Shown here one piece after another: positions 4,771-18,505 of a DNA stretch of 64,000 bases (the first letter of the stretch is position 1; each line of letters starts with the position of its first letter). The notes beneath the pieces were generated by a model. The model was given only the letters and a program-made list of their open reading frames with translations, ran no database searches and was not told where the DNA came from. The translations under genes were made by a program, and so were the position numbers. Source of the DNA: Nitrospira sp. (lineage in GTDB: Bacteria; Nitrospirota; Nitrospiria; Nitrospirales; Nitrospiraceae). The stretch is from NCBI GenBank assembly GCA_036984305.1, contig BQWY01000001.1:124001-188000 (forward strand), given 5' to 3'.

Positions 4771-6267
4771 TCAGCCACCGGGAAGAAGAGGCAACGCTGA
4801 TCCGGCAGCAACCGGTCCGGCCAGGTTGGAGAACATGAGGGTGGCCGCCACGACCCAATCCATCACAGGCTGAGGATAGATGCCCATGATCAGCGTTGCC
4901 GCCATGGTCACGCACAGGACGGCTTTCATCTGACCGGAGACCTGCAGCGGTCTCGGATCGGTCGGTTCGTTGATGTACATTTTTTTGACGACGATCAGAT
5001 AGTAGTAGAGTGAAATGACGATGTTAATCAATCCGACGGTAATGAGCGCGTACAGACCCTCCTTGATTGCGGCTACGAAAATATAGAGTTTCCCGATAAA
5101 GCCGGCCAGTGGAGGCACGCCGGCCAACGACAACAGGAAGATCAGCATGGAAAAAGCCAGAAGCGGAGACCGCCGGTTCAGACCGTTGTAGTCCTCGATT
5201 TCATCGCTGCCCAACAGCTGCCCCACGGCAATGACGACGGCAAAGGCGCCCAGGTTCGCGAACAGATAGGTGAGCAGATAAAACAGGATGGCATCCTCCC
5301 CCATCTTGGTTCCGGCCGCCAAGCCAATGAGGACGTTGCCGATTTGCGCGATGCCGGAATATGCCAGCAGGCGCTTGATGTTCCGCTGGGCGATCGCCAC
5401 GATGTTGGCGTAGGTCATGGACAGAATCGAGACCGCCACCAGCAACAACACCCACTGGGGTTTCAAGTTGGCCAGCGCCACGTAAAACATCCGGATCAAG
5501 ATCGCCAGCGCCGCCCCCTTCGGTGCAATCGAGAGGAACGCCGTCACGGGAGTCGGGGCTCCGTGATAAGTGTCCGGAATCCAGGAATGGAACGGCACGG
5601 CGCCGATTTTGAATCCGAGGGCAGCGAAAATCAGCAAGTAGCCGATGATCAAGCCGGGTGTTGGCTTCGTGCCGACCATGTCGGAAAATACGAGTTGGCC
5701 CGTCTCGCCGTACACCAGACTAATGCCATAGGCCAAAAGACCGGCCGCGAAGACCCCCAAGATAAAAAACTTGACGCCGGATTCGTTGGAAGCCAGATCC
5801 TCGCGCAAGTAGGCCACCAGGACGTAGAAGCCGAAGGTGGAAAACTCGAGCGTCACGAAGACGGATAGGAGATCGTTGGCCGAGGACATGAACATCATGC
5901 CCAGCGCGGACATCAGCACCAGAAAATAGTACTCGCCACGGAAGAATCTGAATTTCCCGATGTAATCGGCTGAAGCCAAAACGACGAGCGCGGTGGCGCC
6001 GACCACAAAGAACTTGAAGAAAATGGCCATGCGGTCCAGCACGAACATGTTGCGGAACAACGTGCCGGACACATGTGTCAGGTCGAGCCAAGCCAGACAC
6101 CCCAGCGTACCGAGCAACCCCACCAGGCTGAGCGTGGCAATGTGGGCTTTGGGAAGGCGGGGCAACGAGAAGTCGACGGCAAGCACCACGCACAACCAGA
6201 GCGTGAGGAAAATCTCCGGCAGCATGAGCAGCAGATCGGATGGGGCCAGCGAAAGCGAAAACGTCAT
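4771..6267 (-). CDS. nuoN: NADH-quinone oxidoreductase subunit N
   Basis: This is the antiporter-like membrane subunit NuoN of complex I (498 residues, about 14 membrane helices). The TM7 Lys is present in ALGFKIGAVPFHSW and the TM8 Lys in SIAPKGAALAI, with the discontinuous-helix motif LAGVPPLAGFIGK in the C-terminal half. It is the last gene of the operon. The ATG at 6267 overlaps the stop of the preceding nuoM copy as ATGA. The frame stays open well upstream into nuoM, but that extension is a shadow. No intrinsic terminator with a T-run was seen in the 139 bases downstream. Confidence 0.95.
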   Translation of the reverse strand: MTFSLSLAPSDLLLMLPEIFLTLWLCVVLAVDFSLPRLPKAHIATLSLVGLLGTLGCLAWLDLTHVSGTLFRNMFVLDRMAIFFKFFVVGATALVVLASADYIGKFRFFRGEYYFLVLMSALGMMFMSSANDLLSVFVTLEFSTFGFYVLVAYLREDLASNESGVKFFILGVFAAGLLAYGISLVYGETGQLVFSDMVGTKPTPGLIIGYLLIFAALGFKIGAVPFHSWIPDTYHGAPTPVTAFLSIAPKGAALAILIRMFYVALANLKPQWVLLLVAVSILSMTYANIVAIAQRNIKRLLAYSGIAQIGNVLIGLAAGTKMGEDAILFYLLTYLFANLGAFAVVIAVGQLLGSDEIEDYNGLNRRSPLLAFSMLIFLLSLAGVPPLAGFIGKLYIFVAAIKEGLYALITVGLINIVISLYYYLIVVKKMYINEPTDPRPLQVSGQMKAVLCVTMAATLIMGIYPQPVMDWVVAATLMFSNLAGPVAAGSALPLLPGG

Positions 6268-7919
6268 GGCCGGCTCACCCCCTCGGTGCTCACGCGGGTG
6301 ACCTGCGCCGGCTCCACGGCCTGGCGGGTCGCGGGAGGACCGTCCTGGTTTTCGACGACTGGAACCACTTTGGTAATTCGCGCGACAAGTGGATCCACCC
6401 CCGCCCGCACGACGGAATAGAAGTGTCCGGGTGACAAGAAGAACCAAATGCTGCACCCCATCATCAATACGAACGGAAGCCGATCGACGAACGAGACGGC
6501 ATCGCGCGCGTGAGCGTAATGCTGATCCATGGCGCCGTAAAAAATGCCCCGCATCATGCGGAACAGATACGCCATCGTGAGCACGATGCCGATGACGGCA
6601 ACGACGACTTGGACCGGATATTTGTTCCAGCTCCCGACGATGATCATCACCTCCGCGAGGAAGTTGACGGTGCCGGGCATGCCGATGGAGGCCATGCAGC
6701 CCACGATCGTACAGCCGGCAATGAACGGCATTCGATTCACGAGCCCGCCCAACGAGGGAATGTCTCGTGTATGCGTCTGGTCGTACACCCACCCCGCCAT
6801 GGCGAACAACATGGAGGTCGCGAGCGCATGGGCAAACATATACATCACGGCGCCGGTGAGGCTGATATAGTCGAGCGCCGCCATGCCGAGGAAGACGTAG
6901 CCCATGTGGCTGGAACTCGAGTATCCGATCACGTATTTGGTGTCCCTTGCGTAGAACGCCACGAAACCGCCGTACAGCATGCTGAATATACACAGGATTG
7001 CCGCGATGGGCATGAGTTCCCGCGTCGTCTCCGGAAGGATCTCAAAGGCCACCCGGATGATCGAGAAATGGCCCAGCTTCATCAGCACTCCGGCGTGCAG
7101 CATGCTTGTGGCGGCCGGGGCTGCGGCGTGACCGACCGGGGACCACGAATGGAGCGGCCAAATCGGTGCAATCGACGCGAATCCGAAGAAGATCAATAAC
7201 CAAATCAGTGTCGCCAACGGGCCGTCAAAATGAGCCTGCTCGCGCAGCACCAGAATGTCGAACGTATTCAATCCGGAAAACTTATAGATCAGCAGGATAC
7301 CCATGAGGCAGAGCACGGCGAACGCGGACAGAAAGAGGACGAGCTTCATGGCCGCGTACTCTTTGCTGTTCGAGCCGAAATTGAAAATGAAGCCGACGGA
7401 ATCGCGTTTCTTCAGACCTTCGGCATCGGTCATTTCCAGGTACGTTTTAGTATGGCTGCCCCACATCCCCAACAGGAGGTACATGGGGATGACCGACATC
7501 TCGTAAAAGAAATACAGGAAGAACAGGTCGAGCGACATGAAGACGCCGATCGTCGCTGCGGCCAGGATCAGGAGCCAGATGTAGAATTGTTTGGCCCGAT
7601 CCTTCGTATGCCACTGCACAAAAATTCCCGCGAACAGGAGAATGCAGGACGCCAACACCAGCGGCGTTCCGATCCCGTCCACCCCGAGATAGAGCGCGAT
7701 GCCCAATTGCTTGGACCATTCGTAGCGTTGCACGAACTGGAACCCGCCCTTGGCGGCGTCGAAGGCATAAAAGAGATAGAAGGAGGCCAGCAGGCTGATG
7801 CCGGCCGCGCTCGCCGCCGTGACGCGGACCATGAGCTTCTGCTTCTCCGGGATCACGATGAGCGCAGCGGCTCCAACGAATGGAGCGAAGAGAATGATGA
7901 GCAGCAGGTAGTCCGTCAT
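6264..7919 (-). CDS. nuoM2: Second NuoM-type subunit (NuoM') of a 2M complex I
   Basis: This 551-residue antiporter-like subunit keeps the TM5 Glu (YEMSVIPMY), a TM8 Lys (AGVLMKLG) and the TM12-type Glu (MPGTVNFLAEVM). At the TM7 position, where NuoM has FAxKxP, it reads FASIAP with Ile250 in place of Lys. It also carries a polar insertion after TM5 (residues about 160-185) and a soluble tail of about 45 residues. It lies six bases downstream of the other nuoM. Tandem nuoM genes define the '2M' complex I type, in which the extra subunit is thought to lengthen the proton-pumping arm. The function of this divergent copy is inferred. Confidence 0.93.
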   Translation of the reverse strand: MTDYLLLIILFAPFVGAAALIVIPEKQKLMVRVTAASAAGISLLASFYLFYAFDAAKGGFQFVQRYEWSKQLGIALYLGVDGIGTPLVLASCILLFAGIFVQWHTKDRAKQFYIWLLILAAATIGVFMSLDLFFLYFFYEMSVIPMYLLLGMWGSHTKTYLEMTDAEGLKKRDSVGFIFNFGSNSKEYAAMKLVLFLSAFAVLCLMGILLIYKFSGLNTFDILVLREQAHFDGPLATLIWLLIFFGFASIAPIWPLHSWSPVGHAAAPAATSMLHAGVLMKLGHFSIIRVAFEILPETTRELMPIAAILCIFSMLYGGFVAFYARDTKYVIGYSSSSHMGYVFLGMAALDYISLTGAVMYMFAHALATSMLFAMAGWVYDQTHTRDIPSLGGLVNRMPFIAGCTIVGCMASIGMPGTVNFLAEVMIIVGSWNKYPVQVVVAVIGIVLTMAYLFRMMRGIFYGAMDQHYAHARDAVSFVDRLPFVLMMGCSIWFFLSPGHFYSVVRAGVDPLVARITKVVPVVENQDGPPATRQAVEPAQVTRVSTEGVSRP

Positions 7920-7925
7920 GATGCT

Positions 7926-9485
7926 CTACTCGCGCGCCACCCGCGGCGTCGCGTCCACAGTGGTCAAGGTCCCACGGTCCAGCCGGTCGACCAGCGCCTG
8001 CACCGAGCCGTTCATCATGCGAAGGAACGGCGAGGGATACAAACCGATCCAGAGAATCATGATCGAGAGCGACACGCTGATGACCAACTCACCCATTTTT
8101 AAATCCGCCACGGCTTGGCTCAAGCCTTTTCCCAGCGGGCCCAGGATCGAGCGCTCGTAATACCAGAGGAAATACGCAGCGCCGAAGATGACGCCAAGCA
8201 CCGCAATCGAGCCGTACCACCACTTGGCCTTGAACGCGCCGAGCAGAATCAGGAATTCCCCCACGAATCCGTTCGTGCCGGGCAAACCGATCGAGGCCAA
8301 GCCGATGAGGAGTAAAAAGCTTGCGAGCAATGGCGCCTGCTTCGCCAAGCCTCCGAAAGAGGCAATATGCGTGCTCTGCCGTCGAGAATAGAGAAACCCG
8401 GCAATAAAGAAGAGCCCCGCCGTGCTGAAGCCCAGGTTGATCATCGTCAGCAAACCGCCCTGAAGGCCCTGGAAATTCAGGGCGAAGACGCCGACCACGA
8501 CGAATCCCAAGTGGCTGACGCTGCTAAAGGCAAGCAGCCTCCTGAAATCCGGCTGGATCAGCGCGACGAACGCACCATAGAGAATACCGGCCAGAGCCAT
8601 CACCATCATGATGGTCACGACGGTTTCGTTCTTCGATGCGTCGGGCAGCAAGGGTAGGCTGAATCGCATGAACCCGTAGGTGCCCATTTTGATCCCGGCT
8701 AACATGACGGCCATTCCGATGGGGCCCTCCATCAGGGCATCAGGCAGCCACGTATGGAAGGGAAAGACCGGCGCCTTGAAGGCAAATCCCAGAAATAGGA
8801 GCCAGAAGATGAGCAGTTGCTTATCCAGCGAAATCGGTGCCGTCAGAAGGTCTAAAAAATCGAACGAATACGTGGGCTCAATGTGATTGCGTACGGCCCA
8901 GGCGTGATAATTAATGTCGAGGAGTGCGATGCCGACCAGCATGAACACGCTGCCCAGCAGTGTGTACAACACGAACTTGAGCGCCGCGTACTGACGCTCG
9001 GCCCCTCCTCCCCAGAGCTTGATGAGAAAATAGCTGGGAAGCAGCATCAATTCCCAGAAGACGAAGAAGAGGACCAAATCCAGCGTTACGAACACCCCGA
9101 TGACCGTCGTTTCGAGCAACAACATGGCCATCATGTAGAGGCGGACTTTTTGCCGAACGGTGTCCCAGGAATACACCATGATCAGGGTGGTCAGAAACGC
9201 CGTGACGCCGACGAACAGCACACTGATCCCATCGACCCCAAGGTGGTAACTGATTCCCAGCGGCGGGACCCACGTGATCCGTTCTGCAAACTGCATCGAT
9301 GGCGAATCCGGCACGAAATGAGCCAGCACCACAATGGCCAGCGCGAGTTCTAGCAAGGAGACGCCCAGCGCCACCGCCTTGATCATTTCCTCGTCGTCCA
9401 GGAACCACAGGACGATGGCTCCCACGAAGGGCACGAGCAACAGGCACGAGAGGATTGGAAAGTGAAATGTGAGTTCTTCGAGCAT
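7926..9485 (-). CDS. nuoM: NADH-quinone oxidoreductase subunit M (first of two)
   Basis: The 519-residue proton-pumping membrane subunit keeps the TM5 Glu (FWELMLLPSY), the TM7 Lys (FAFKAPVFPFHTW) and the TM12 Glu (LPGTNGFVGEFL). The TM8 segment reads AGIKMGTYGF. Compared with the usual AGxLLKxGxYG it is two residues shorter, so Lys266 sits nearer the AG motif. It lies between nuoL and the second nuoM and is transcribed with both. Confidence 0.95.
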   Translation of the reverse strand: MLEELTFHFPILSCLLLVPFVGAIVLWFLDDEEMIKAVALGVSLLELALAIVVLAHFVPDSPSMQFAERITWVPPLGISYHLGVDGISVLFVGVTAFLTTLIMVYSWDTVRQKVRLYMMAMLLLETTVIGVFVTLDLVLFFVFWELMLLPSYFLIKLWGGGAERQYAALKFVLYTLLGSVFMLVGIALLDINYHAWAVRNHIEPTYSFDFLDLLTAPISLDKQLLIFWLLFLGFAFKAPVFPFHTWLPDALMEGPIGMAVMLAGIKMGTYGFMRFSLPLLPDASKNETVVTIMMVMALAGILYGAFVALIQPDFRRLLAFSSVSHLGFVVVGVFALNFQGLQGGLLTMINLGFSTAGLFFIAGFLYSRRQSTHIASFGGLAKQAPLLASFLLLIGLASIGLPGTNGFVGEFLILLGAFKAKWWYGSIAVLGVIFGAAYFLWYYERSILGPLGKGLSQAVADLKMGELVISVSLSIMILWIGLYPSPFLRMMNGSVQALVDRLDRGTLTTVDATPRVARE

Positions 9486-9503: not shown

Positions 9504-11474
9504 TTAGGAGGCACTCCACCAGATCAGAACCAAATGCACGAGCAAGAATAACCCTGCCACGATCACCGCCGCGTAATGATGCACCATGCCGCTCTGCAGG
9601 CGCCGCCAGGAGCGCGCCGCAAGATGATTGGCGTACCCGATGATGTTCAATCCGGCGTACACCACGTACTTCTCGAACCACGTGCTCGCAAGGGAGGTAA
9701 ACTCGGTCCCGCGTCCCACCATACGTACCGCGCCGTCGATAATCGTGCGGTCCACCCAATCGAGTACAAGGCCCAGTTTCTTCGTGGTTTCCACAAATAG
9801 GAAATCGTACAACTCGTCCACATACCACTTGTTCAAGAGCGTGGTATAGAGGGCGGGTTGCCTGTTTGCCCAGGCATCCGCAGTGCCCGGCTTGACCGTA
9901 TAGAGATAGTGGGCGATCAGCCACCCGGTCAGCGCGATGACCGTGGCAATCCCCATCAACATGAACGTCGCGCCGGCGCCGGCGGCGTGCTCTCCCTCCC
10001 CGCCTCCGACCACAGGCGCGAGGAAATGGTGGAACCAGCCGTTCTCGGGAGGAATGCCCGGTACGCCGCCCACGAGCGAGAGCCCGGCCAGTACCATCAA
10101 GGGCACCAGCATGACCGGGGGCGACTCATGGATGTGCTCGAGCGTATGGTGGTCGACCCGCGATTCCCCGTAAAACGTGAGATAGGTCAGTCGGAACATA
10201 TAAAACGAGGTCAACAGGGCGCCGAAGGCGGCCATGCCGTACAGTGCATAGTGATGATGGACGAACGCGTGCGCCATGATCTCGTCTTTGCTCCAAAACC
10301 CGGCGAATGGAAAGATCCCGGCGATCGCGAGCGTGCCGATCAGGAACACGCGATGCGTCCACGGGATCTTGTTGTGCAACGCGCCCATTTTTCGAATGTC
10401 CTGCTCTCCGTGCAGCGCATGAATGACCGATCCGGCCGAGAGGAACAAGAGTGCCTTGAAAAAAGCATGAGTCATGAGGTGGAAGACGGCGGCGGTATAG
10501 GCGCCGATCCCGCACCCCAGGAACATGTATCCGAGCTGACTGACGGTGGAGTAGGCCAGAACGCGCTTGATGTCGGTCTGCACTAACCCGATCGTCGCGG
10601 CAAAGAGCGCCGTGGCGCCGCCGATCCACCCCACGGTCTCCAGCGCCGCAGGTGCCATGTCGTAGATCACGTGGTTGCGAACCACCATGTAGACCCCGGC
10701 GGTCACCATGGTCGCGGCGTGAATGAGCGCGCTGACCGGTGTCGGACCTTCCATGGCGTCCGGCAACCAGGTGTAGAGCGGCAATTGGGCCGATTTTCCG
10801 ACGGCGCCGACCAACAGGCACAGCGCGATGGCCGTTGCCATTTCGGGTGAGAGTTGGCTGGCCTGACCAAAGACCTTCGTGTAATCCAAAGTTTTAAAGT
10901 TCACGAAGACGAGGAAGATGGCCAATAGAAAGCCCGCGTCTCCGATGCGATTGACGACGAAGGCCTTGGTGGCGGCCTTGGCGGCAGACACCTTCTCATA
11001 GTAGTAGCCGATCAACAGATACGAGCACAGACCGACTCCCTCCCATCCGATGAACAGCACCAGGTAGTTGTTGCCCATCACGAGCAGCAACATCGAGACC
11101 ATGAAGAGGTTCATGTACGTGAAGAAGCGGGTGAATCCATCCTCTCCATGCATGTACCCGATGGAATAGACGTGAATGAGGAAGCCCACGCCCGTCACGA
11201 CGAGCAGCATGATGCAGGTCAGTGGATCGATCAGGTAGGCGAGATTGATGGTCAGATCGCCGCCAAAAATCCACTGGTACGCGACGACTTCACGTGCCGC
11301 CCTCGTCCGCAGGGTGTCGGCAAAGACGAAGATGACGCACAGAAAGGACAAAAACACCGATCCGGCAGCCAAGCGGCCTGCCAGTTGATGGGAGTACCGG
11401 CTTCCCAGAAGGCCATTGCAGAGGACGGCGGCCAGCGGGAACAGCGGGATGAGCAAAACGACTAAATCGAACAC
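9504..11474 (-). CDS. nuoL: NADH-quinone oxidoreductase subunit L
   Basis: This is the distal antiporter-like subunit with the long lateral helix (656 residues; usual length about 610-660). Landmarks are the TM5 Glu in FIGWEGVGLCSY, the TM7 Lys in GAVGKSAQLPLYTWLPDAM, the TM8 His in ALIHAATMV and the broken-helix PFAGFWSKDEI. The C-terminal region of about 130 residues contains the amphipathic lateral helix and a last anchor helix. It lies one base downstream of nuoK. Confidence 0.96.
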   Translation of the reverse strand: MFDLVVLLIPLFPLAAVLCNGLLGSRYSHQLAGRLAAGSVFLSFLCVIFVFADTLRTRAAREVVAYQWIFGGDLTINLAYLIDPLTCIMLLVVTGVGFLIHVYSIGYMHGEDGFTRFFTYMNLFMVSMLLLVMGNNYLVLFIGWEGVGLCSYLLIGYYYEKVSAAKAATKAFVVNRIGDAGFLLAIFLVFVNFKTLDYTKVFGQASQLSPEMATAIALCLLVGAVGKSAQLPLYTWLPDAMEGPTPVSALIHAATMVTAGVYMVVRNHVIYDMAPAALETVGWIGGATALFAATIGLVQTDIKRVLAYSTVSQLGYMFLGCGIGAYTAAVFHLMTHAFFKALLFLSAGSVIHALHGEQDIRKMGALHNKIPWTHRVFLIGTLAIAGIFPFAGFWSKDEIMAHAFVHHHYALYGMAAFGALLTSFYMFRLTYLTFYGESRVDHHTLEHIHESPPVMLVPLMVLAGLSLVGGVPGIPPENGWFHHFLAPVVGGGEGEHAAGAGATFMLMGIATVIALTGWLIAHYLYTVKPGTADAWANRQPALYTTLLNKWYVDELYDFLFVETTKKLGLVLDWVDRTIIDGAVRMVGRGTEFTSLASTWFEKYVVYAGLNIIGYANHLAARSWRRLQSGMVHHYAAVIVAGLFLLVHLVLIWWSAS

Positions 11475-11475
11475 G

Positions 11476-11778
11476 TTACCACTTCAACAAATTCATCTCG
11501 TCGACATTGGTGGAAATTTTGCCTCGGAACACGACGATAATGATCGCGAGGCCTACGGCGGCTTCCCCTGCCGCGACGGCAATGATGAACAGCGCCACGA
11601 TTTGGCCCGCCATCGATTCCAAATGATGGGAAAAGGCGACCAGGTTGATATTGGCTGCATTCAGCATGATCTCGACCGCCATCAACACGATGATGAAGTT
11701 CCGTCGAATGAGGACCCCCAGCAACCCCGTCAAGAACAGGATCGTGCTCACGGTCACGTATGCGGATAAGGGCACCAT
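11476..11778 (-). CDS. nuoK: NADH-quinone oxidoreductase subunit K
   Basis: This 100-residue subunit has three membrane helices, the normal size for NuoK. The conserved Glu residues of the proton path are in LMAVEIMLNAANIN (TM2) and AAGEAAVGLAI (TM3). It interacts with NuoJ and NuoN/NuoL in the membrane arm. It sits between nuoJ (17-base gap) and nuoL (one-base gap). Confidence 0.95.
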   Translation of the reverse strand: MVPLSAYVTVSTILFLTGLLGVLIRRNFIIVLMAVEIMLNAANINLVAFSHHLESMAGQIVALFIIAVAAGEAAVGLAIIIVVFRGKISTNVDEMNLLKW

Positions 11779-11795: not shown

Positions 11796-12317
11796 TCAAC
11801 GCTCTTCGGCTTCCTGATTGGAAGGGGTCTTTGCGAGCACAATTGCTCCGATTACGGCTCCCAAGAGGAAGACTCCCACGATCTCGAATTGCAGGAGATA
11901 CTCGCTGAACATCTTCAAGCCGATCGCGGTCGTGTCGCCCGTCTGCAGGACCACATCCATCGGGGCATCGCCCTTGGCCCCTCCGAACGGAGAGCCGAAC
12001 AGGACGGCCACCAGGTACACGCTCCCGAGCAGGGCAGGGCCCAGAAACCAGTAGGCATGCCGATGGAAGTATTGTTCTTCCGTCTTGAGATTCATGAGCA
12101 TCAGGACGAAGAGATAGAGCACCAGGATGGCGCCGGCGTAGACGATGACCTGGACGGCCCAAAGGAACTCCGCATTGAGCAGGATGAAGAGCCCGGAGAC
12201 GTGGAGTAGAACGGCGAGCAGCGCCATGCCGCAATGCACGGGATTCTTCAAGGCCACGGTCATGGCGCCAGCCACGATCGAGGCGACCGCAAAATAGACA
12301 AAAAACAAGACGACCAT
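11796..12317 (-). CDS. nuoJ: NADH-quinone oxidoreductase subunit J
   Basis: This membrane subunit has about five helices in 173 residues, typical for NuoJ. The conserved TM3 segment with the pi-bulge region reads VQVIVYAGAILVLYLFVLMLMNL. A more divergent C-terminal half with two further helices follows. It is 42 bases downstream of nuoI. Confidence 0.94.
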   Translation of the reverse strand: MVVLFFVYFAVASIVAGAMTVALKNPVHCGMALLAVLLHVSGLFILLNAEFLWAVQVIVYAGAILVLYLFVLMLMNLKTEEQYFHRHAYWFLGPALLGSVYLVAVLFGSPFGGAKGDAPMDVVLQTGDTTAIGLKMFSEYLLQFEIVGVFLLGAVIGAIVLAKTPSNQEAEER

Positions 12318-12359: not shown

Positions 12360-12947
12360 TTACGTGAGATGCTTCGGTGGAGGCTGCGTTCCCTTCACCA
12401 CGGACTGTGGGAAAAAGTACCGATATTCGCGGCTGTTGTCGGTATTCGCTTCCTGGCCATGGGCATACAAATAGCGTTTCCCATCCTCCAGGAACTTCTC
12501 GCCGATCTCGTACAACCGCCTTTTATCGAACATGAGCGTACGTTTGTCGTGGGTGGAGAACTCGTAGAGTTTCGTCATCGCGAGCGCGTTGACAGGGCAG
12601 GCCTCGACACAATACCCGCAGAACACGCACTTGGTGATATCGATATAAAACTCTTTGGCATAGCGTTGCAACGGCAAGGATTTATCCTCGGCGCTAATGA
12701 CTTTGATGCACCGGGACGGGCAGGCCGCCTCGCACAAGTCGCATCCCACACAACGTTCCTTCCCATCGTCATACCGGAGAAGCGCCAGCGCGCCACGGTG
12801 TGTGTCGGGAATGTGCCGCTGCTCACGCGGGTATTGGAAGGTGATGGGCTTATGAAACATGTGCTTGAAGGTCACCTTCATCGCGTCCCAGATCTCATCG
12901 AACAGGATCGCGTGCAGGATTTTCTTTGTCAGTGTGGCGACTCCCAT
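12360..12947 (-). CDS. nuoI: NADH-quinone oxidoreductase subunit I (2x[4Fe-4S])
   Basis: This 195-residue iron-sulfur subunit carries two 4Fe-4S motifs, CVGCDLCEAACP and CVFCGYCVEACP, which hold the clusters (N6a/N6b) that pass electrons towards NuoB. The ATG at 12947 gives a standard N-terminus; upstream codons in the same frame run into nuoG and were excluded. A GGAGG lies about 11 bases upstream. It starts only 29 bases after the nuoG stop, so there is no room for nuoH, which in the common gene order lies between nuoG and nuoI. Confidence 0.95.
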   Translation of the reverse strand: MGVATLTKKILHAILFDEIWDAMKVTFKHMFHKPITFQYPREQRHIPDTHRGALALLRYDDGKERCVGCDLCEAACPSRCIKVISAEDKSLPLQRYAKEFYIDITKCVFCGYCVEACPVNALAMTKLYEFSTHDKRTLMFDKRRLYEIGEKFLEDGKRYLYAHGQEANTDNSREYRYFFPQSVVKGTQPPPKHLT

Positions 12948-12976
12948 CGTAGCGATGTCCTCCGGGTTGCCCTCGT

Positions 12977-15685
12977 CTAGGCCTTCTCCACAAAGACGTG
13001 GGCCAGCTTGAACGTGGGAACCTTCGTAACTGGATCCACGTCGACCGCCATCAGGTCCTTCACCGGCGGCTCGTTGAAGTGTTCCGGAAAGAAGCACACG
13101 CCGGGCATGATCATGGCCTCGGGGAGCACACCTATCACCAGCGACCCCTTACCCGATGTCACGCGGACCAGCGCCCCCTCTTTGAGCCCCATACGCTCGC
13201 AGTCCTCAAGGCTCATGTGCAGCCGTCCGGAGTTGGGCGCGATGTTCATCAGTCCGGAAGCCTGAGTCGAGAGTTTTCCCGAGTGACAGAGGAGTTGTCC
13301 CATCACCAATCGGAACGGCTTGTCAGGTGCCGGATTCGTCGCGGCGACAGAATAACGTGTTGCGACGGAAGTGGCATAGCCGTTTCCAAGATAGGCATCC
13401 GGACTTCCCGGTGCTCGTTTGGGCTGGCCAAGATTATAGTACCCGGGCAACAACTTCATGATTTCGTTTTGTATATCTTGGGCGGTTTCATATTCCCAGA
13501 CGGTCCCCAGGCCGCTCGCCAGCGACGTCATGATGTGCCAATCCGGCAAGCTTTCCCCAATCGGATCGAGCGATGCGCGCACCCGTTGGACTTTGCCTTC
13601 CTGATTGGTGACGGTGCCGTCTTTTTCCGCGAACGTACAGGCCGGCAGCACGAAATGCGCGAGCTTGCCCGTCTCGGTGAGAAAGGGGTCCTGGCAAATC
13701 AGCAGGTCGAGTTTGTCGAGCGCCGACTTGACGTTGAACGAAGCCGGAAGCGTTTCGAGCGGGTTTTCACCGATGAGATACAGCGCCTTGATCTGGCCCG
13801 TCCGGCACCGATCCAGGATTTCTGTCAGCGTGGCCCCCTGCGTCGCGTCCGGAAGCCGTGCAGGAGCGTTCTCGGTACCCCAGGCTTTCGCAAACCGTGC
13901 CCGGGCGGTTTCGTCGGTGAAGGCGATCGGCCCAGGCAGGAATTCAGCGGCCGCCCCCATGTCCAAGGCGCCTTGTTCGTTGGCTTCTTCGACGACGGTC
14001 GCAAGACCGCATCCGGGACGACCAAGCTTCCCGGTGAGCCAGGCCAGATCCACGAGGTTCAACACGTCGCGATACCCGTGAGTTCGACGAACGATGCCCT
14101 CACCCGCGATGATCACGGCCCGAGGCGCCTCTGCAAACAACGTGGCGCAGTCGTGAATCTGTTCGGTCGTGACCCCGGTCAGCTCCGCGACGCGCGCGAG
14201 CGAGACGTTCACGACGGCCTGCTTGAGTGCCGCAAATGCCGCGGGGTGTCGGTCGACGGTCTCGGTATCAACCAAATCCTGCTCGATCACCGCCTTGATC
14301 AAACCCCGGACGAAGAGGCCCTCGGTGCCAGGTTTGACCAAGGTCGGGTGCGAGCACAGTTTCGCGATGTTGGTATTGGTGGAATCGACCACGATCACCT
14401 GGGCTCGGTAGACGCGAATGGCTTCTTTGACGCGCAGGGAAGCAATCGGATTCGTCTCTGTGATGTTCGACCCGATCACCAGGATCGCTTTCGCTTTGGT
14501 GATGTCCGCCGAATCAGCCGTCATGCGGCTGACCCCCAACGCCTGGCGGATCGCATAAACGAAATTCGCATGCCCATATCGAGCGCTGCTGTCCAGTTGA
14601 TTCGTGCCGACGACCATGCGCATGAGCTTTTGGAAGACGTAGAGTTCCTCGTTCGTGCATCGAGACGTGATGAGTCCCGCAATGGCCTGAGGTCCGTGTG
14701 CGTGCTTCACGGCCTCGACCCGCTCAACCAACTCGTGCATGGTTTCGAGCCACGGAGCCGGAACTAATTCCCGATCTTTTCGGATGAAGGGACGCGTCAG
14801 ACGGGTCTTGCTGTCGATGAACTGAAAGCCGAATCGCCCGCGGACACACAGGCCTCCATGTCCCTTGGCCGTCTCGGTTCGGTCGCCCCATTTGTTCTTC
14901 CAGGACAGCGGCGAGGTCACACGGACGACCTGGGAGTCCTTGGTCTCGATGTCCATCTGACAGCCGTCCCCGCAGTAGTTGCAGGTGGTCCGTGTCTTGC
15001 GCATTTGCCAAGGCTTGTACAAGTACTTCGAATACTTGTTGGTGATCGCCCCGACGGGGCAGACGGCTAAGCAGTCGCCGCAGAATTCACATTGAAGCGG
15101 CAGGTCCCCCTTGGCCACGACCTGGTTGAATCCGCCCTTCTTCATGAACTGGAGCGCGTCGATCATCTGCACGTCCTTGCAGATATTGATGCACTCGCCG
15201 CACGCGATGCAGCGGTTCATGTTGAAGTCCAACACCAGGCTTCGCGTATCCTCCGGGATCAACTTCTGCTTGGCGTTGGCCAGGTTGGTCACGCCGTGTT
15301 GGAAGGCCATGTCCTGCAATTCGCAGTGCCCATCGGCGTCACAGACTGGACAGTCGAGGGGATGCACCGACAGGTGTTTCTCGACCGCCTTCTTACGAGC
15401 CGCAAACAGGTCTTCGCCGGTCGTGCGGATGACCATTCCCGCCGCCGCCTTGGCGGTGCACGAACGTACCGGTGCCTTTTTGCCTTCTTGCATGACCAGG
15501 CACATGCCGCACGAGCCAAAGGGGTCGAAGGTATAGTGGTAGCACATCGCCGGGATGATTTTGCCGGTACTGGCGATCACGTCATAGAGCGACACGCCGC
15601 TGCGAGCAGTGACCGGCGTGCCATCGATATTCAGTTCGATGGTTTCCGTTTCGGCTTCCGGGTTTGTCGCGGGTTTCAACGCCAT
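12977..15685 (-). CDS. nuoG: NADH-quinone oxidoreductase subunit G
   Basis: This 902-residue molybdopterin-oxidoreductase-fold subunit of the peripheral arm has these domains in order: an N-terminal 2Fe-2S ferredoxin domain (CYHYTFDPFGSCGMC); a His-Cys 4Fe-4S segment (HPLDCPVCDADGHCELQD); two 4Fe-4S motifs (CIACGECINIC and CEFCGDCLAVCP); and a further CNYCGDGC...GGLC cluster at the start of the catalytic-like domain. The position used by a catalytic Cys/Sec in formate dehydrogenases reads SARYGHANF here, so formate activity is not expected. With nuoE and nuoF absent from this cluster, NuoG may accept electrons directly from another donor such as ferredoxin; this is inference. Confidence 0.94.
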   Translation of the reverse strand: MALKPATNPEAETETIELNIDGTPVTARSGVSLYDVIASTGKIIPAMCYHYTFDPFGSCGMCLVMQEGKKAPVRSCTAKAAAGMVIRTTGEDLFAARKKAVEKHLSVHPLDCPVCDADGHCELQDMAFQHGVTNLANAKQKLIPEDTRSLVLDFNMNRCIACGECINICKDVQMIDALQFMKKGGFNQVVAKGDLPLQCEFCGDCLAVCPVGAITNKYSKYLYKPWQMRKTRTTCNYCGDGCQMDIETKDSQVVRVTSPLSWKNKWGDRTETAKGHGGLCVRGRFGFQFIDSKTRLTRPFIRKDRELVPAPWLETMHELVERVEAVKHAHGPQAIAGLITSRCTNEELYVFQKLMRMVVGTNQLDSSARYGHANFVYAIRQALGVSRMTADSADITKAKAILVIGSNITETNPIASLRVKEAIRVYRAQVIVVDSTNTNIAKLCSHPTLVKPGTEGLFVRGLIKAVIEQDLVDTETVDRHPAAFAALKQAVVNVSLARVAELTGVTTEQIHDCATLFAEAPRAVIIAGEGIVRRTHGYRDVLNLVDLAWLTGKLGRPGCGLATVVEEANEQGALDMGAAAEFLPGPIAFTDETARARFAKAWGTENAPARLPDATQGATLTEILDRCRTGQIKALYLIGENPLETLPASFNVKSALDKLDLLICQDPFLTETGKLAHFVLPACTFAEKDGTVTNQEGKVQRVRASLDPIGESLPDWHIMTSLASGLGTVWEYETAQDIQNEIMKLLPGYYNLGQPKRAPGSPDAYLGNGYATSVATRYSVAATNPAPDKPFRLVMGQLLCHSGKLSTQASGLMNIAPNSGRLHMSLEDCERMGLKEGALVRVTSGKGSLVIGVLPEAMIMPGVCFFPEHFNEPPVKDLMAVDVDPVTKVPTFKLAHVFVEKA

Positions 15686-15772: not shown

Positions 15773-17029
15773 CTATCGATCGCACTCGCCCATCACGATG
15801 TCATACGTCCCGAAGATCGTGACGGCATCGGCAATCATGTAACCTCTCGCCATGAAATCAAACGCGCCCATGTGAATGAACGAGGGGGAGCGGATTTTTA
15901 GCCGATAAGGTTTTCCGCCGCCCGTGCTGACGATATAAAAACCCAACTCCCCTTTGTGTGCCTCCGTGCCGCAATAAATCTCACCAGGGGGAGCATCGAA
16001 TCCCTGGGAGAAGAGCTTGAACTGCTGGATCATCGATTCGAGGTTCGTGAACACCCGATCCTTTGGTGGCAACGTGACGCTCGGCACAGCCGCCATCACG
16101 GGCCCCTCGGCGGGGATTTGCTCGAGGCACTGACGAACGATCTTGACGCTTTCGTGCATTTCGAGCACGCGAATCCAATACCGATCGTAGGTATCTCCGT
16201 TCTTGCCGACCGGCACGCTGAATTCGCACCGCGGATAGGCCCCGTAGGAGTCGTACTTGCGAAGATCGTAATCCACACCGGAGCCGCGCAGCGTCGGGCC
16301 ACTGAGGCCGAAGCTGACGGCATCTTCAGCGGAAATCACGGCGACACCTTTGGTCCTGGCCAGCCAGATCCGGTTCTTCTCGAGAAACACCACGTACTCC
16401 TCGATCTTCGGAGGGAAGTAATCGAGGAACTTGCGGATTTTCTCGAACAGCGCGGGCGTGAAATCCCGCTCGATGCCGCCGATCCGGTACCAACTCGTGG
16501 TCAGGCGAGCCCCGCACAGTTCGTCGAACCAGTCGAGAAGGATCTCGCGATCCCGAAAGGTATAAAAGAACACGGTCATGGCGCCGATATCCAGAGCCTG
16601 CGTACCCAGCCAAAACAGATGCCCGATGATACGCTGGACCTCCGCGACGATCGTCCGAAGATATTCGGCCCGCTCCGGCACCGTAATGTTCATCAGCTTT
16701 TCGACGGCCCGGCAGTAGGCATAGTTGTTGTACATGGCACAGACGTAGTCGAGCCGGTCGGTATGCGGGATGAACTGATGATAGGTCCCTTCCTCCGCCA
16801 GTTTTTCCACGCCGCGATGGAGATAGCCCATGACCGGAATGGATTTGACGATCCGTTCACCTTCGAGTTCAAGAATCACCTTCAACACACCATGGGTGCT
16901 CGGGTGCTGCGGCCCCATGTTGAGCAGCAGCTCCTCCGTACGCAGCGTCGGCAGCGTCTCGCTTTCCGGGTGCGCCGGGTCGACCTTATAAACGGTCGTG
17001 CGTTGGTCTTCGAAGGGACGCGTGGTCAT
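15773..17029 (-). CDS. nuoD: NADH-quinone oxidoreductase subunit D
   Basis: This is the 49-kDa-type subunit (418 residues) that forms the quinone pocket with NuoB and NuoH. The conserved His loop is present (GPQHPSTHGV), as is MGYLHRGVEKLAEEGTYHQ. The next block reads FIPHTDRLDY: His89 occupies the position of the almost invariant quinone-binding Tyr (Tyr87 in Thermus Nqo4, Tyr144 in Yarrowia). The C-terminus ends with the normal DIVMGECDR. It is a separate gene, not fused to nuoC, 11 bases downstream of it. Confidence 0.95.
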   Translation of the reverse strand: MTTRPFEDQRTTVYKVDPAHPESETLPTLRTEELLLNMGPQHPSTHGVLKVILELEGERIVKSIPVMGYLHRGVEKLAEEGTYHQFIPHTDRLDYVCAMYNNYAYCRAVEKLMNITVPERAEYLRTIVAEVQRIIGHLFWLGTQALDIGAMTVFFYTFRDREILLDWFDELCGARLTTSWYRIGGIERDFTPALFEKIRKFLDYFPPKIEEYVVFLEKNRIWLARTKGVAVISAEDAVSFGLSGPTLRGSGVDYDLRKYDSYGAYPRCEFSVPVGKNGDTYDRYWIRVLEMHESVKIVRQCLEQIPAEGPVMAAVPSVTLPPKDRVFTNLESMIQQFKLFSQGFDAPPGEIYCGTEAHKGELGFYIVSTGGGKPYRLKIRSPSFIHMGAFDFMARGYMIADAVTIFGTYDIVMGECDR

Positions 17030-17555: not shown

Positions 17556-18083
17556 CTACACCTTCAAGGCCGCCTTGATCCGTTCCGGCTGTTTCGTAAA
17601 CACCCGCTTCTGCATGATGCGTTCTTGCAGCTTCAAGATGCCGTCGAACAATGCCTCCGGGGTGGGAGGACAGCCGGGGACATAAATATCGACGGGGACG
17701 AAGCGGTCGACGCCCTGCACTACGCTGTAACTGTCGTAGATGTTGCCGGAGGTTGCGCAAGACCCCATCGCGATCACGTACTTGGGTTCGGGCATCTGGT
17801 CGTAAATTTTTCGAATCACCGGCGCCATGCGTCGGCACACGGTTCCAGCCACAATCATCAAGTCTGACTGCCGTGGCGAAGCGCGAAAGACGCCTGCACC
17901 GTACCGGTCCATGTCGTATCGTGACGATACCGCGGCGATCATCTCAATCGCGCAACAGGCCAATCCGAACGTCATCGGCCAGAGAGACCCCTTTCTGGCC
18001 CAGTTGACCGCCCTTTCCACCGTCGTGGTAATGACGTCGGCCTGCCCGTCCTTCTCGTGGCTGCCGATCTGAATCAGTCCCAT
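17556..18083 (-). CDS. nuoB: NADH-quinone oxidoreductase subunit B
   Basis: This PSST-type subunit of 175 residues carries the terminal 4Fe-4S cluster N2. All four ligands are visible: the tandem Cys pair in [10 protein letters not shown], the Cys of [17 protein letters not shown] and the Cys of [10 protein letters not shown]. It forms the quinone-reduction site with NuoD. Its ATG lies inside the end of nuoA, a 10-base overlap indicating coupled translation. Confidence 0.96.
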
Positions 18084-18457
18084 TCGAGGGCTCCCTTCCG
18101 CCAGGCATAAACATAAGCCACGACGAATAACCCAATGAAGATCATCATTTCGATGAGGCCGATCAATCCGATCTTGCTGAAGACCACGGCCCAGGGATAC
18201 AGGAAAATCACCTCAATATCGAAAATCACGAACAGCATGGCAAAGATATAGTAGCGAACCGGAAACGGCATCCGTGCGTCGGAAAATGGCTCGGAACCGC
18301 ACTCATAGGCGCTAAGCTTTTCGGGTTCTGGATACTTCGGCTGGACAAAATAGCTGATGACCAGCGTGACGACTCCGAAAGCCAACGCCACGAAGATAAA
18401 CAACAAAATCGGGAAATAATCCCCGAGATATTGAAGGAGTAGCTCTGACGGCACCAT
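18074..18457 (-). CDS. nuoA: NADH-quinone oxidoreductase subunit A
   Basis: This small membrane subunit has three helices and is 127 residues long from the ATG at 18457. The family motif [20 protein letters not shown] is present between TM1 and TM2, with its conserved Cys, followed by [16 protein letters not shown] at 18493 would extend it by 12 residues, but the ATG fits the family N-terminus better. It is the first gene of the operon, about 40 bases downstream of a plausible promoter. Confidence 0.95.
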
Positions 18458-18505
18458 CGGCAATCCCGAACAGGTGACGACTCGATTGGCCAAAAAAGAG
18501 CCGCA

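What the first reader, a model, noticed from the sequence alone, without database searches (positions are those of the whole stretch)
6264..9485. Tandem nuoM genes: a 2M-type complex I
Two complete but divergent NuoM-type subunits lie side by side between nuoL and nuoN, so the membrane arm should hold four antiporter-like subunits (L, M, M', N). This '2M' architecture has been described for Nitrospira and some other lineages and proposed to couple more protons to transfer involving low-potential donors. The operon here is a clean example and the base for the next three observations.
Basis: partly seen in the sequence, partly recalled or inferred. Interest (0 to 1): 0.65.

Follow-up and report, generated by a model that had tools for sequence, protein, structure and literature searches.

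The report
Nitrospira 2M complex I, atypical second NuoM
The window carries the already described respiratory complex I of Nitrospira-type bacteria with a fourth pump-like subunit, but that extra subunit always lacks the lysine thought to gate proton uptake, which puts its assumed role as an ordinary fifth proton pump in doubt.

Summary
Confirmed: nuoM (7926-9485) and a second, divergent nuoM (6264-7919) lie in tandem between nuoL and nuoN, minus strand, in an operon nuoABCDGIJKL-M-M'-N without nuoE, nuoF or nuoH. NuoL's lateral helix is 25 residues longer than in the canonical NuoL of the same genome. This is the published clade-3 '2M' complex I of Nitrospira, present in nearly all Nitrospirales, so the architecture is known.

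It forms an ancient NuoM subtype with the single NuoM of Bacteroidota complexes that lack NuoEFG. In 101 of 101 M' sequences the TM7 lysine (E. coli NuoM K234, the ion-pair lysine held to be essential for pumping) is isoleucine; Bacteroidota have leucine. A histidine is added in TM8. Glu-TM5, Lys-TM8 and Glu-TM12 stay. M' is the best conserved antiporter subunit, most of all in this altered TM7-TM8, so it is selected, not decaying. 'One more ordinary pump, hence a fifth proton' is therefore an assumption. The genome's single NuoH sits in the canonical operon and must be shared if the 2M complex has one. Whether Chadwick et al. 2018 noted the lost lysine could not be checked.

The parts
4771..6267 (-). 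nuoN, antiporter-like subunit with full residue set (E141, K220, K250, K393)
   Evidence: TIGR01770 405 bits; key residues invariant in 71 loci
6264..7919 (-). second nuoM (M'), Lys-less NuoM subtype
   Evidence: TIGR01972 392 bits; tree; 101/101 relatives with Ile at the TM7 Lys position
7170..7172 (-). codon ATT, Ile250 of M', where NuoM has the TM7 lysine (E. coli K234)
7095..7097 (-). codon CAC, His275 of M', TM8 histidine absent from ordinary NuoM (E. coli L259)
   Evidence: 101/101 in relatives; also in three Bacteroidota NuoM
7368..7457 (-). M'-specific insert (about 28 aa) between TM5 and TM6, conserved in sequence, length varying by a few residues
7926..9485 (-). first nuoM (M), related to canonical Nitrospirota NuoM; TM7 Lys237 kept, two-residue deletion in TM8
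   Evidence: TIGR01972 525 bits; Lys 95/95, deletion in 89 relatives
9504..11474 (-). nuoL with lengthened lateral helix
   Evidence: NF005141 740 bits, above its cut-off of 556
9624..9698 (-). 25-residue insertion in the NuoL lateral helix (from residue 593)
   Evidence: 79 residues between anchors against 54 in the canonical NuoL of the same genome; coordinates
11476..11778 (-). nuoK
11796..12317 (-). nuoJ
12360..13097 (-). nuoI (true start probably inside this ORF, nearer 12950)
   Evidence: TIGR01971 134.5 bits
12977..15685 (-). enlarged nuoG with a molybdopterin-oxidoreductase-like part
   Evidence: TIGR01591 484 bits, TIGR01973 351 bits, both below their cut-offs
15773..17029 (-). nuoD, not fused to nuoC
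   Evidence: TIGR01962 536 bits
17041..17838 (-). ORF with nuoC (true start inside this ORF)
17556..18083 (-). nuoB
18074..18493 (-). nuoA

Best explanation
The operon encodes the clade-3 2M complex I of Nitrospira. Four antiporter-like subunits (L, M, M', N) sit in one membrane arm held together by a NuoL lateral helix lengthened by about one subunit width. The complex lacks its own NADH module and most likely exchanges electrons between quinol and ferredoxin, in autotrophic nitrifiers against the gradient, using inflowing protons to make reduced ferredoxin for CO2 fixation. It most likely takes NuoH from the canonical complex I. M' is not a copy of M: it is an old NuoM subtype whose Lys/Glu gate has lost the lysine (Ile250) and whose TM8 carries an added histidine beside the usual lysine. 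M' most likely still carries or relays protons along the central axis, but by a rewired gate. Shown: gene content, helix length, phylogeny, residue changes, conservation, a single NuoH. Inferred: joint assembly, ferredoxin as partner, sharing of NuoH, proton stoichiometry, the rewired gate. The stated confidence is for the complex as described; for the rewired gate alone it is about 0.5.
For: Gene content and order. Lateral helix 79 residues between anchors in 71 relatives against 54 in canonical NuoL and 50 in E. coli. Of 236 Nitrospirales genomes searched only about nine lack a strong M' match. M' Ile250 101/101 and His275 101/101; M Lys 95/95. M+M' as one clade rejected, p-AU 1.8e-47; M' with Bacteroidota NuoM 100/97. 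M' is the most conserved antiporter subunit (84.3% mean pairwise identity against 81-82%), and its most conserved 45-residue window begins at residue 242, i.e. TM7-TM8. One NuoH in this genome; in four closed relatives it lies in a full canonical operon. Orphan nuoF beside a [2Fe-2S] ferredoxin and an IscA-like gene and two POR-type oxidoreductases, as described for N. moscoviensis (PMC6606698). Lysine roles: PMC10212512, PMC11496545, PMC5938582.
Against: No protein or activity data. Ferredoxin as partner and the reverse direction are hypotheses in the literature too. A NuoM without the TM7 lysine could be a silent spacer. The structure prediction of M' failed (pLDDT 41), so it is untested whether His275 can stand in for the lysine. 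Subunit order in the arm is not determined.
Confidence: 0.75

Rival explanations
1. M' is an ordinary extra pump: the complex moves five protons per two electrons by the standard mechanism in every antiporter-like subunit, as proposed in the literature.
For: Glu-TM5 (E140), Lys-TM8 (K281), His338 and Glu-TM12 (E423) are invariant in 79 relatives; lengthened lateral helix; published hypothesis (PMC6606698, PMC9040806).
Against: The TM7 lysine, partner of Glu-TM5 in the ion pair that gates each subunit (PMC10212512, PMC11496545), is Ile in 101/101 M'.
Confidence: 0.2
2. M' is a non-pumping spacer or relay that lengthens the arm, changes coupling or insulates M from N, without a proton uptake route of its own.
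For: Loss of the TM7 lysine with invariant replacement; E. coli NuoM charged residues are reported essential (Torres-Bacete 2007, Euro 2008, cited in PMC11496545).
Against: The central axis is otherwise kept and strongly conserved. Bacteroidota complexes use the same subtype as their only NuoM.
Confidence: 0.3
3. M and M' are alternative isoforms: each complex holds one NuoM, chosen by conditions.
For: The known set of antiporter-like subunits would be preserved.
Against: Both genes lie in one tightly packed operon, and the 25-residue helix extension is fixed in 2M NuoL, which fits a longer row and not a swap.
Confidence: 0.05
4. One of the copies belongs to another complex (Mrp antiporter, hydrogenase).
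For: M' is divergent, and this genome has other PF00361 proteins.
Against: Both are above the NuoM cut-off and score far lower with Mrp or hydrogenase models; both fall within NuoM in the trees.
Confidence: 0.02

Closest known systems
2M complex I, clade 3 (Nitrospira; Chadwick et al. 2018, as reported in PMC6606698)
   Same: Two NuoM, lengthened NuoL, separate NuoC and NuoD, enlarged NuoG, no nuoE, nuoF, nuoH; separate nuoF with ferredoxin elsewhere in the genome
   Different: No difference found; the loss of the TM7 lysine in M' was not found in the papers that could be read
Complex_I_3 of Ca. Manganitrophaceae (PMC9040806)
   Same: Two NuoM and a NuoN of the Nitrospira 2M type; lengthened lateral helix. 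Loci L138 and L139 look like this kind: their M' has the same Ile and His
   Different: NuoL replaced by two MrpD-like subunits, five antiporter-like subunits in all
Bacteroidota NUO without NuoEFG (PMC7002350)
   Same: Its single NuoM is the nearest relative of M' in the trees, lacks the TM7 lysine (Leu) and has the TM8 His and Lys
   Different: One NuoM only, own NuoH, no NuoG, no 28-residue TM5-TM6 insert; NuoL C-terminus shows no obvious extension
Canonical complex I of the same genome (L016)
   Same: Homologous core subunits; M is related to its NuoM
   Different: Has E, F, G, H; one NuoM with TM7 lysine; shorter NuoL lateral helix

Membership tests
2M-type complex I | Second NuoM in the operon | tested here: met
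2M-type complex I | Lengthened NuoL lateral helix (about 26 aa) | tested here: met
   +25 aa against canonical NuoL of the same genome
2M-type complex I, clade 3 | No nuoE, nuoF, nuoH; enlarged nuoG | tested here: met
   absence; nuoG 902 aa, but the canonical nuoG of this genome is 897 aa
2M-type complex I | Four antiporter-like subunits assembled in one complex | not testable with these tools
   needs a purified complex or structure
2M-type complex I | Five protons per two electrons | not testable with these tools
   hypothesis in the literature; weakened by the lost TM7 lysine
NuoM (TIGR01972) | Score above curated cut-off, M and M' | tested here: met
   525 and 392 bits against 263.8
Proton-pumping antiporter-like subunit, M' | Glu-TM5, Lys-TM8, Glu/Lys-TM12 | tested here: met
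   E140, K281, E423 invariant in 79 relatives
Proton-pumping antiporter-like subunit, M' | Lys-TM7 | tested here: not met
   Ile in 101/101
Mrp antiporter or hydrogenase subunit | Best score or tree position with those families | tested here: not met

The most novel reading that the evidence does not exclude
The extra subunit of Nitrospira-class 2M complexes belongs to an ancient Lys-less NuoM subtype, shared with Bacteroidota complexes without NuoEFG, in which the Lys-TM7/Glu-TM5 gate is replaced by a TM8 His/Lys arrangement. Such a subunit works as a differently gated pump or an electrostatic relay, so the '2M = fifth proton' rule does not hold as stated, and the subtype marks complexes that use donors other than NADH.
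Probability: 0.4. Interest if true: 0.7.

Novelty: already known. Interest (0 to 1): 0.42.

Why it matters
The 2M complex is invoked to explain how nitrifiers make ferredoxin for CO2 fixation from high-potential electrons, on the premise of one more proton per cycle. If the added subunit lacks the gating lysine in all of them, that energy budget needs a measurement. The subtype is also a natural experiment on whether the TM7 lysine, thought essential, can be replaced.

Tried and rejected
AlphaFold of M' from 52 close relatives gave pLDDT 41 and was discarded; the second job was not used, because coordinates cannot be read out and complexes cannot be modelled. Mrp or hydrogenase origin was rejected. 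Recent duplication of M was rejected. Pseudogene or decay of M' was rejected. Chadwick et al. 2018 is not held. A search of viral contigs for more Lys-less NuoM found nothing. Sampling Bacteroidota genomes through a plasmid locus was not accepted, so that subtype rests on three genera. 2M complexes of other phyla (Chadwick's other clades) could not be fetched, so whether their extra NuoM also lacks the lysine is unknown. Literature searches for a report of the lost lysine found none, but most subscription papers are not held.

Full report
Observation. Two intact NuoM-family genes lie in tandem on the minus strand at 7926-9485 (M, 519 aa) and 6264-7919 (M', 551 aa), between nuoL (9504-11474) and nuoN (4771-6267). 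NCBIfam TIGR01972 scores 525 bits for M and 392 bits for M' against a cut-off of 263.8, far above any Mrp or hydrogenase model. The operon runs nuoA, B, C, D, G, I, J, K, L, M, M', N with small gaps and overlaps. It has no nuoE, nuoF or nuoH. The genome holds one NuoH, in a separate canonical operon at C1:654-669 kb, and two NuoF, one in that operon and one alone.

Known system. PMC6606698 describes exactly this for N. moscoviensis: clade 3 of the 2M complex I of Chadwick et al. 2018, with duplicated NuoM, lengthened NuoL, enlarged NuoG and no NuoE, NuoF or NuoH. PMC8115632 and PMC12342949 report it across Nitrospira. Here M' was found in almost all of 236 Nitrospirales genomes and in several sister orders of the class; no listed genome outside the class matched at E 1e-80. 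The architecture is therefore already known.

Does it fit four subunits in series? Between two fixed anchors the NuoL C-terminus has 79 residues in 71 of 72 Nitrospirales 2M NuoL (the odd one is a short ORF) and in the sister orders, even where the carrier is an MrpD-like subunit. The canonical NuoL of this genome and of three relatives has 54, and E. coli has 50. An added 25 residues of helix is about 38 A at 1.5 A per residue, roughly one antiporter-like subunit (subunit width from general knowledge). Nothing here determines the order of M and M'.

M' is not a copy of M. In maximum-likelihood trees M groups with the canonical NuoM of Nitrospirota. M' forms one clade (100/100) whose sister is the NuoM of Bacteroidota (100/97). 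Holding M and M' together costs 85.7 log-likelihood units (p-AU 1.8e-47; first tree). Branches are long, so the exact sister of M' is less sure than its separation from M.

The missing lysine. Antiporter-like subunits carry Lys-TM7, paired with Glu-TM5; Lys or His-TM8; and Lys or Glu-TM12 (PMC10212512, PMC7419157). E. coli NuoM numbering is E144, K234, K265, E407 (checked). M has all four (E145, K237, K266, E410). M' has E140, K281 and E423, but Ile250 at the K234 position. All 101 M' sequences examined have Ile; all 95 M sequences in which the motif was found have Lys. All 101 M' carry His275 in TM8, at the place of E. coli L259. That is near the His-TM8 of NuoL and MrpA; the exact register is uncertain by one residue. 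PMC7419157 notes that MrpA has both a TM8 His and the Lys, so M' resembles MrpA there. The single NuoM of Phocaeicola, Bacteroides and Prevotella shows the same pattern, with Leu in place of Lys and the same SMLHAGVLMKLG motif. The Bacteroides and Prevotella operons were seen to lack nuoE, nuoF and nuoG, and in B. fragilis this NUO does not contribute to NADH oxidation (PMC7002350).

Selection. Over 62 loci M' has the highest mean pairwise identity of the four subunits (84.3% against 81.2, 81.0 and 82.0% for L, M and N). The most conserved 45-residue window of M' starts at residue 242, i.e. TM7-TM8 with the substituted lysine. The change is kept by selection. M' also has a conserved insert of about 28 residues between TM5 and TM6 that Bacteroidota NuoM lack; a role in docking the lengthened helix is a guess.

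NuoH. Of 154 good Nitrospirales genomes 153 have a NuoH. Four genomes with M' that are closed or nearly so (reported as one contig each) have exactly one, inside a complete canonical operon away from the 2M operon. NuoD of the 2M operon keeps the HPSTHGV and HTDRLDY motifs around the quinone-site residues. The simplest reading is that the 2M complex borrows NuoH from the canonical one. This is an inference.

Mechanism. The genome has a lone nuoF beside a [2Fe-2S] ferredoxin and an IscA-like gene, as in N. moscoviensis, and two POR-type oxidoreductases, consistent with a need for reduced ferredoxin. The published idea that the complex spends proton motive force to make ferredoxin from quinol remains the best guess. 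Whether M' contributes a proton is open. I put about 0.5 on a rewired but proton-conducting M', 0.3 on a relay or spacer, and 0.2 on standard pumping.

Limits. No structure (one search failed), no coordinates, no 2M sequences from other phyla, three Bacteroidota genera only, and the founding paper could not be read. The lost lysine may have been noted there.

Noticed in passing
window 8688-8690 and preceding TM8 codons of nuoM (M): M has a two-residue deletion in TM8 just before Lys266, seen in 89 M sequences but not in those of some sister families (L138, L139, L146-L149) or in L134. The pi-bulge region of TM8 is thus altered in both NuoM of the Nitrospira complex.
   Followed up: partly
window 12977-15685: NuoG of the 2M operon scores higher with the formate dehydrogenase alpha model (484 bits) than with NuoG (351 bits), both below cut-off; the molybdopterin-type part may be worth a look.
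   Followed up: no
L138, L139 (family f7 of the same class): Operons with two MrpD-like subunits in place of NuoL plus M, M', N, like Complex_I_3 of Manganitrophaceae; one MrpD-like subunit carries a lateral helix of the same fixed length (79) as 2M NuoL.
   Followed up: partly
G369 C16:131708-133225: A second, more divergent M'-like gene (46-52% identity to M' over most of its length) in a genome that already has an M' on C1.
   Followed up: no
L019 (G000 C1:4183000-4192000) and L018 (C1:3896000-3903000): Further PF00361 proteins outside complex I, including a tandem NuoL-like pair, possibly DabB-type or Mrp-like.
   Followed up: no
L017 1886-3937: Lone nuoF beside a [2Fe-2S] ferredoxin and an IscA-like gene, the arrangement reported for N. 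moscoviensis.
   Followed up: partly
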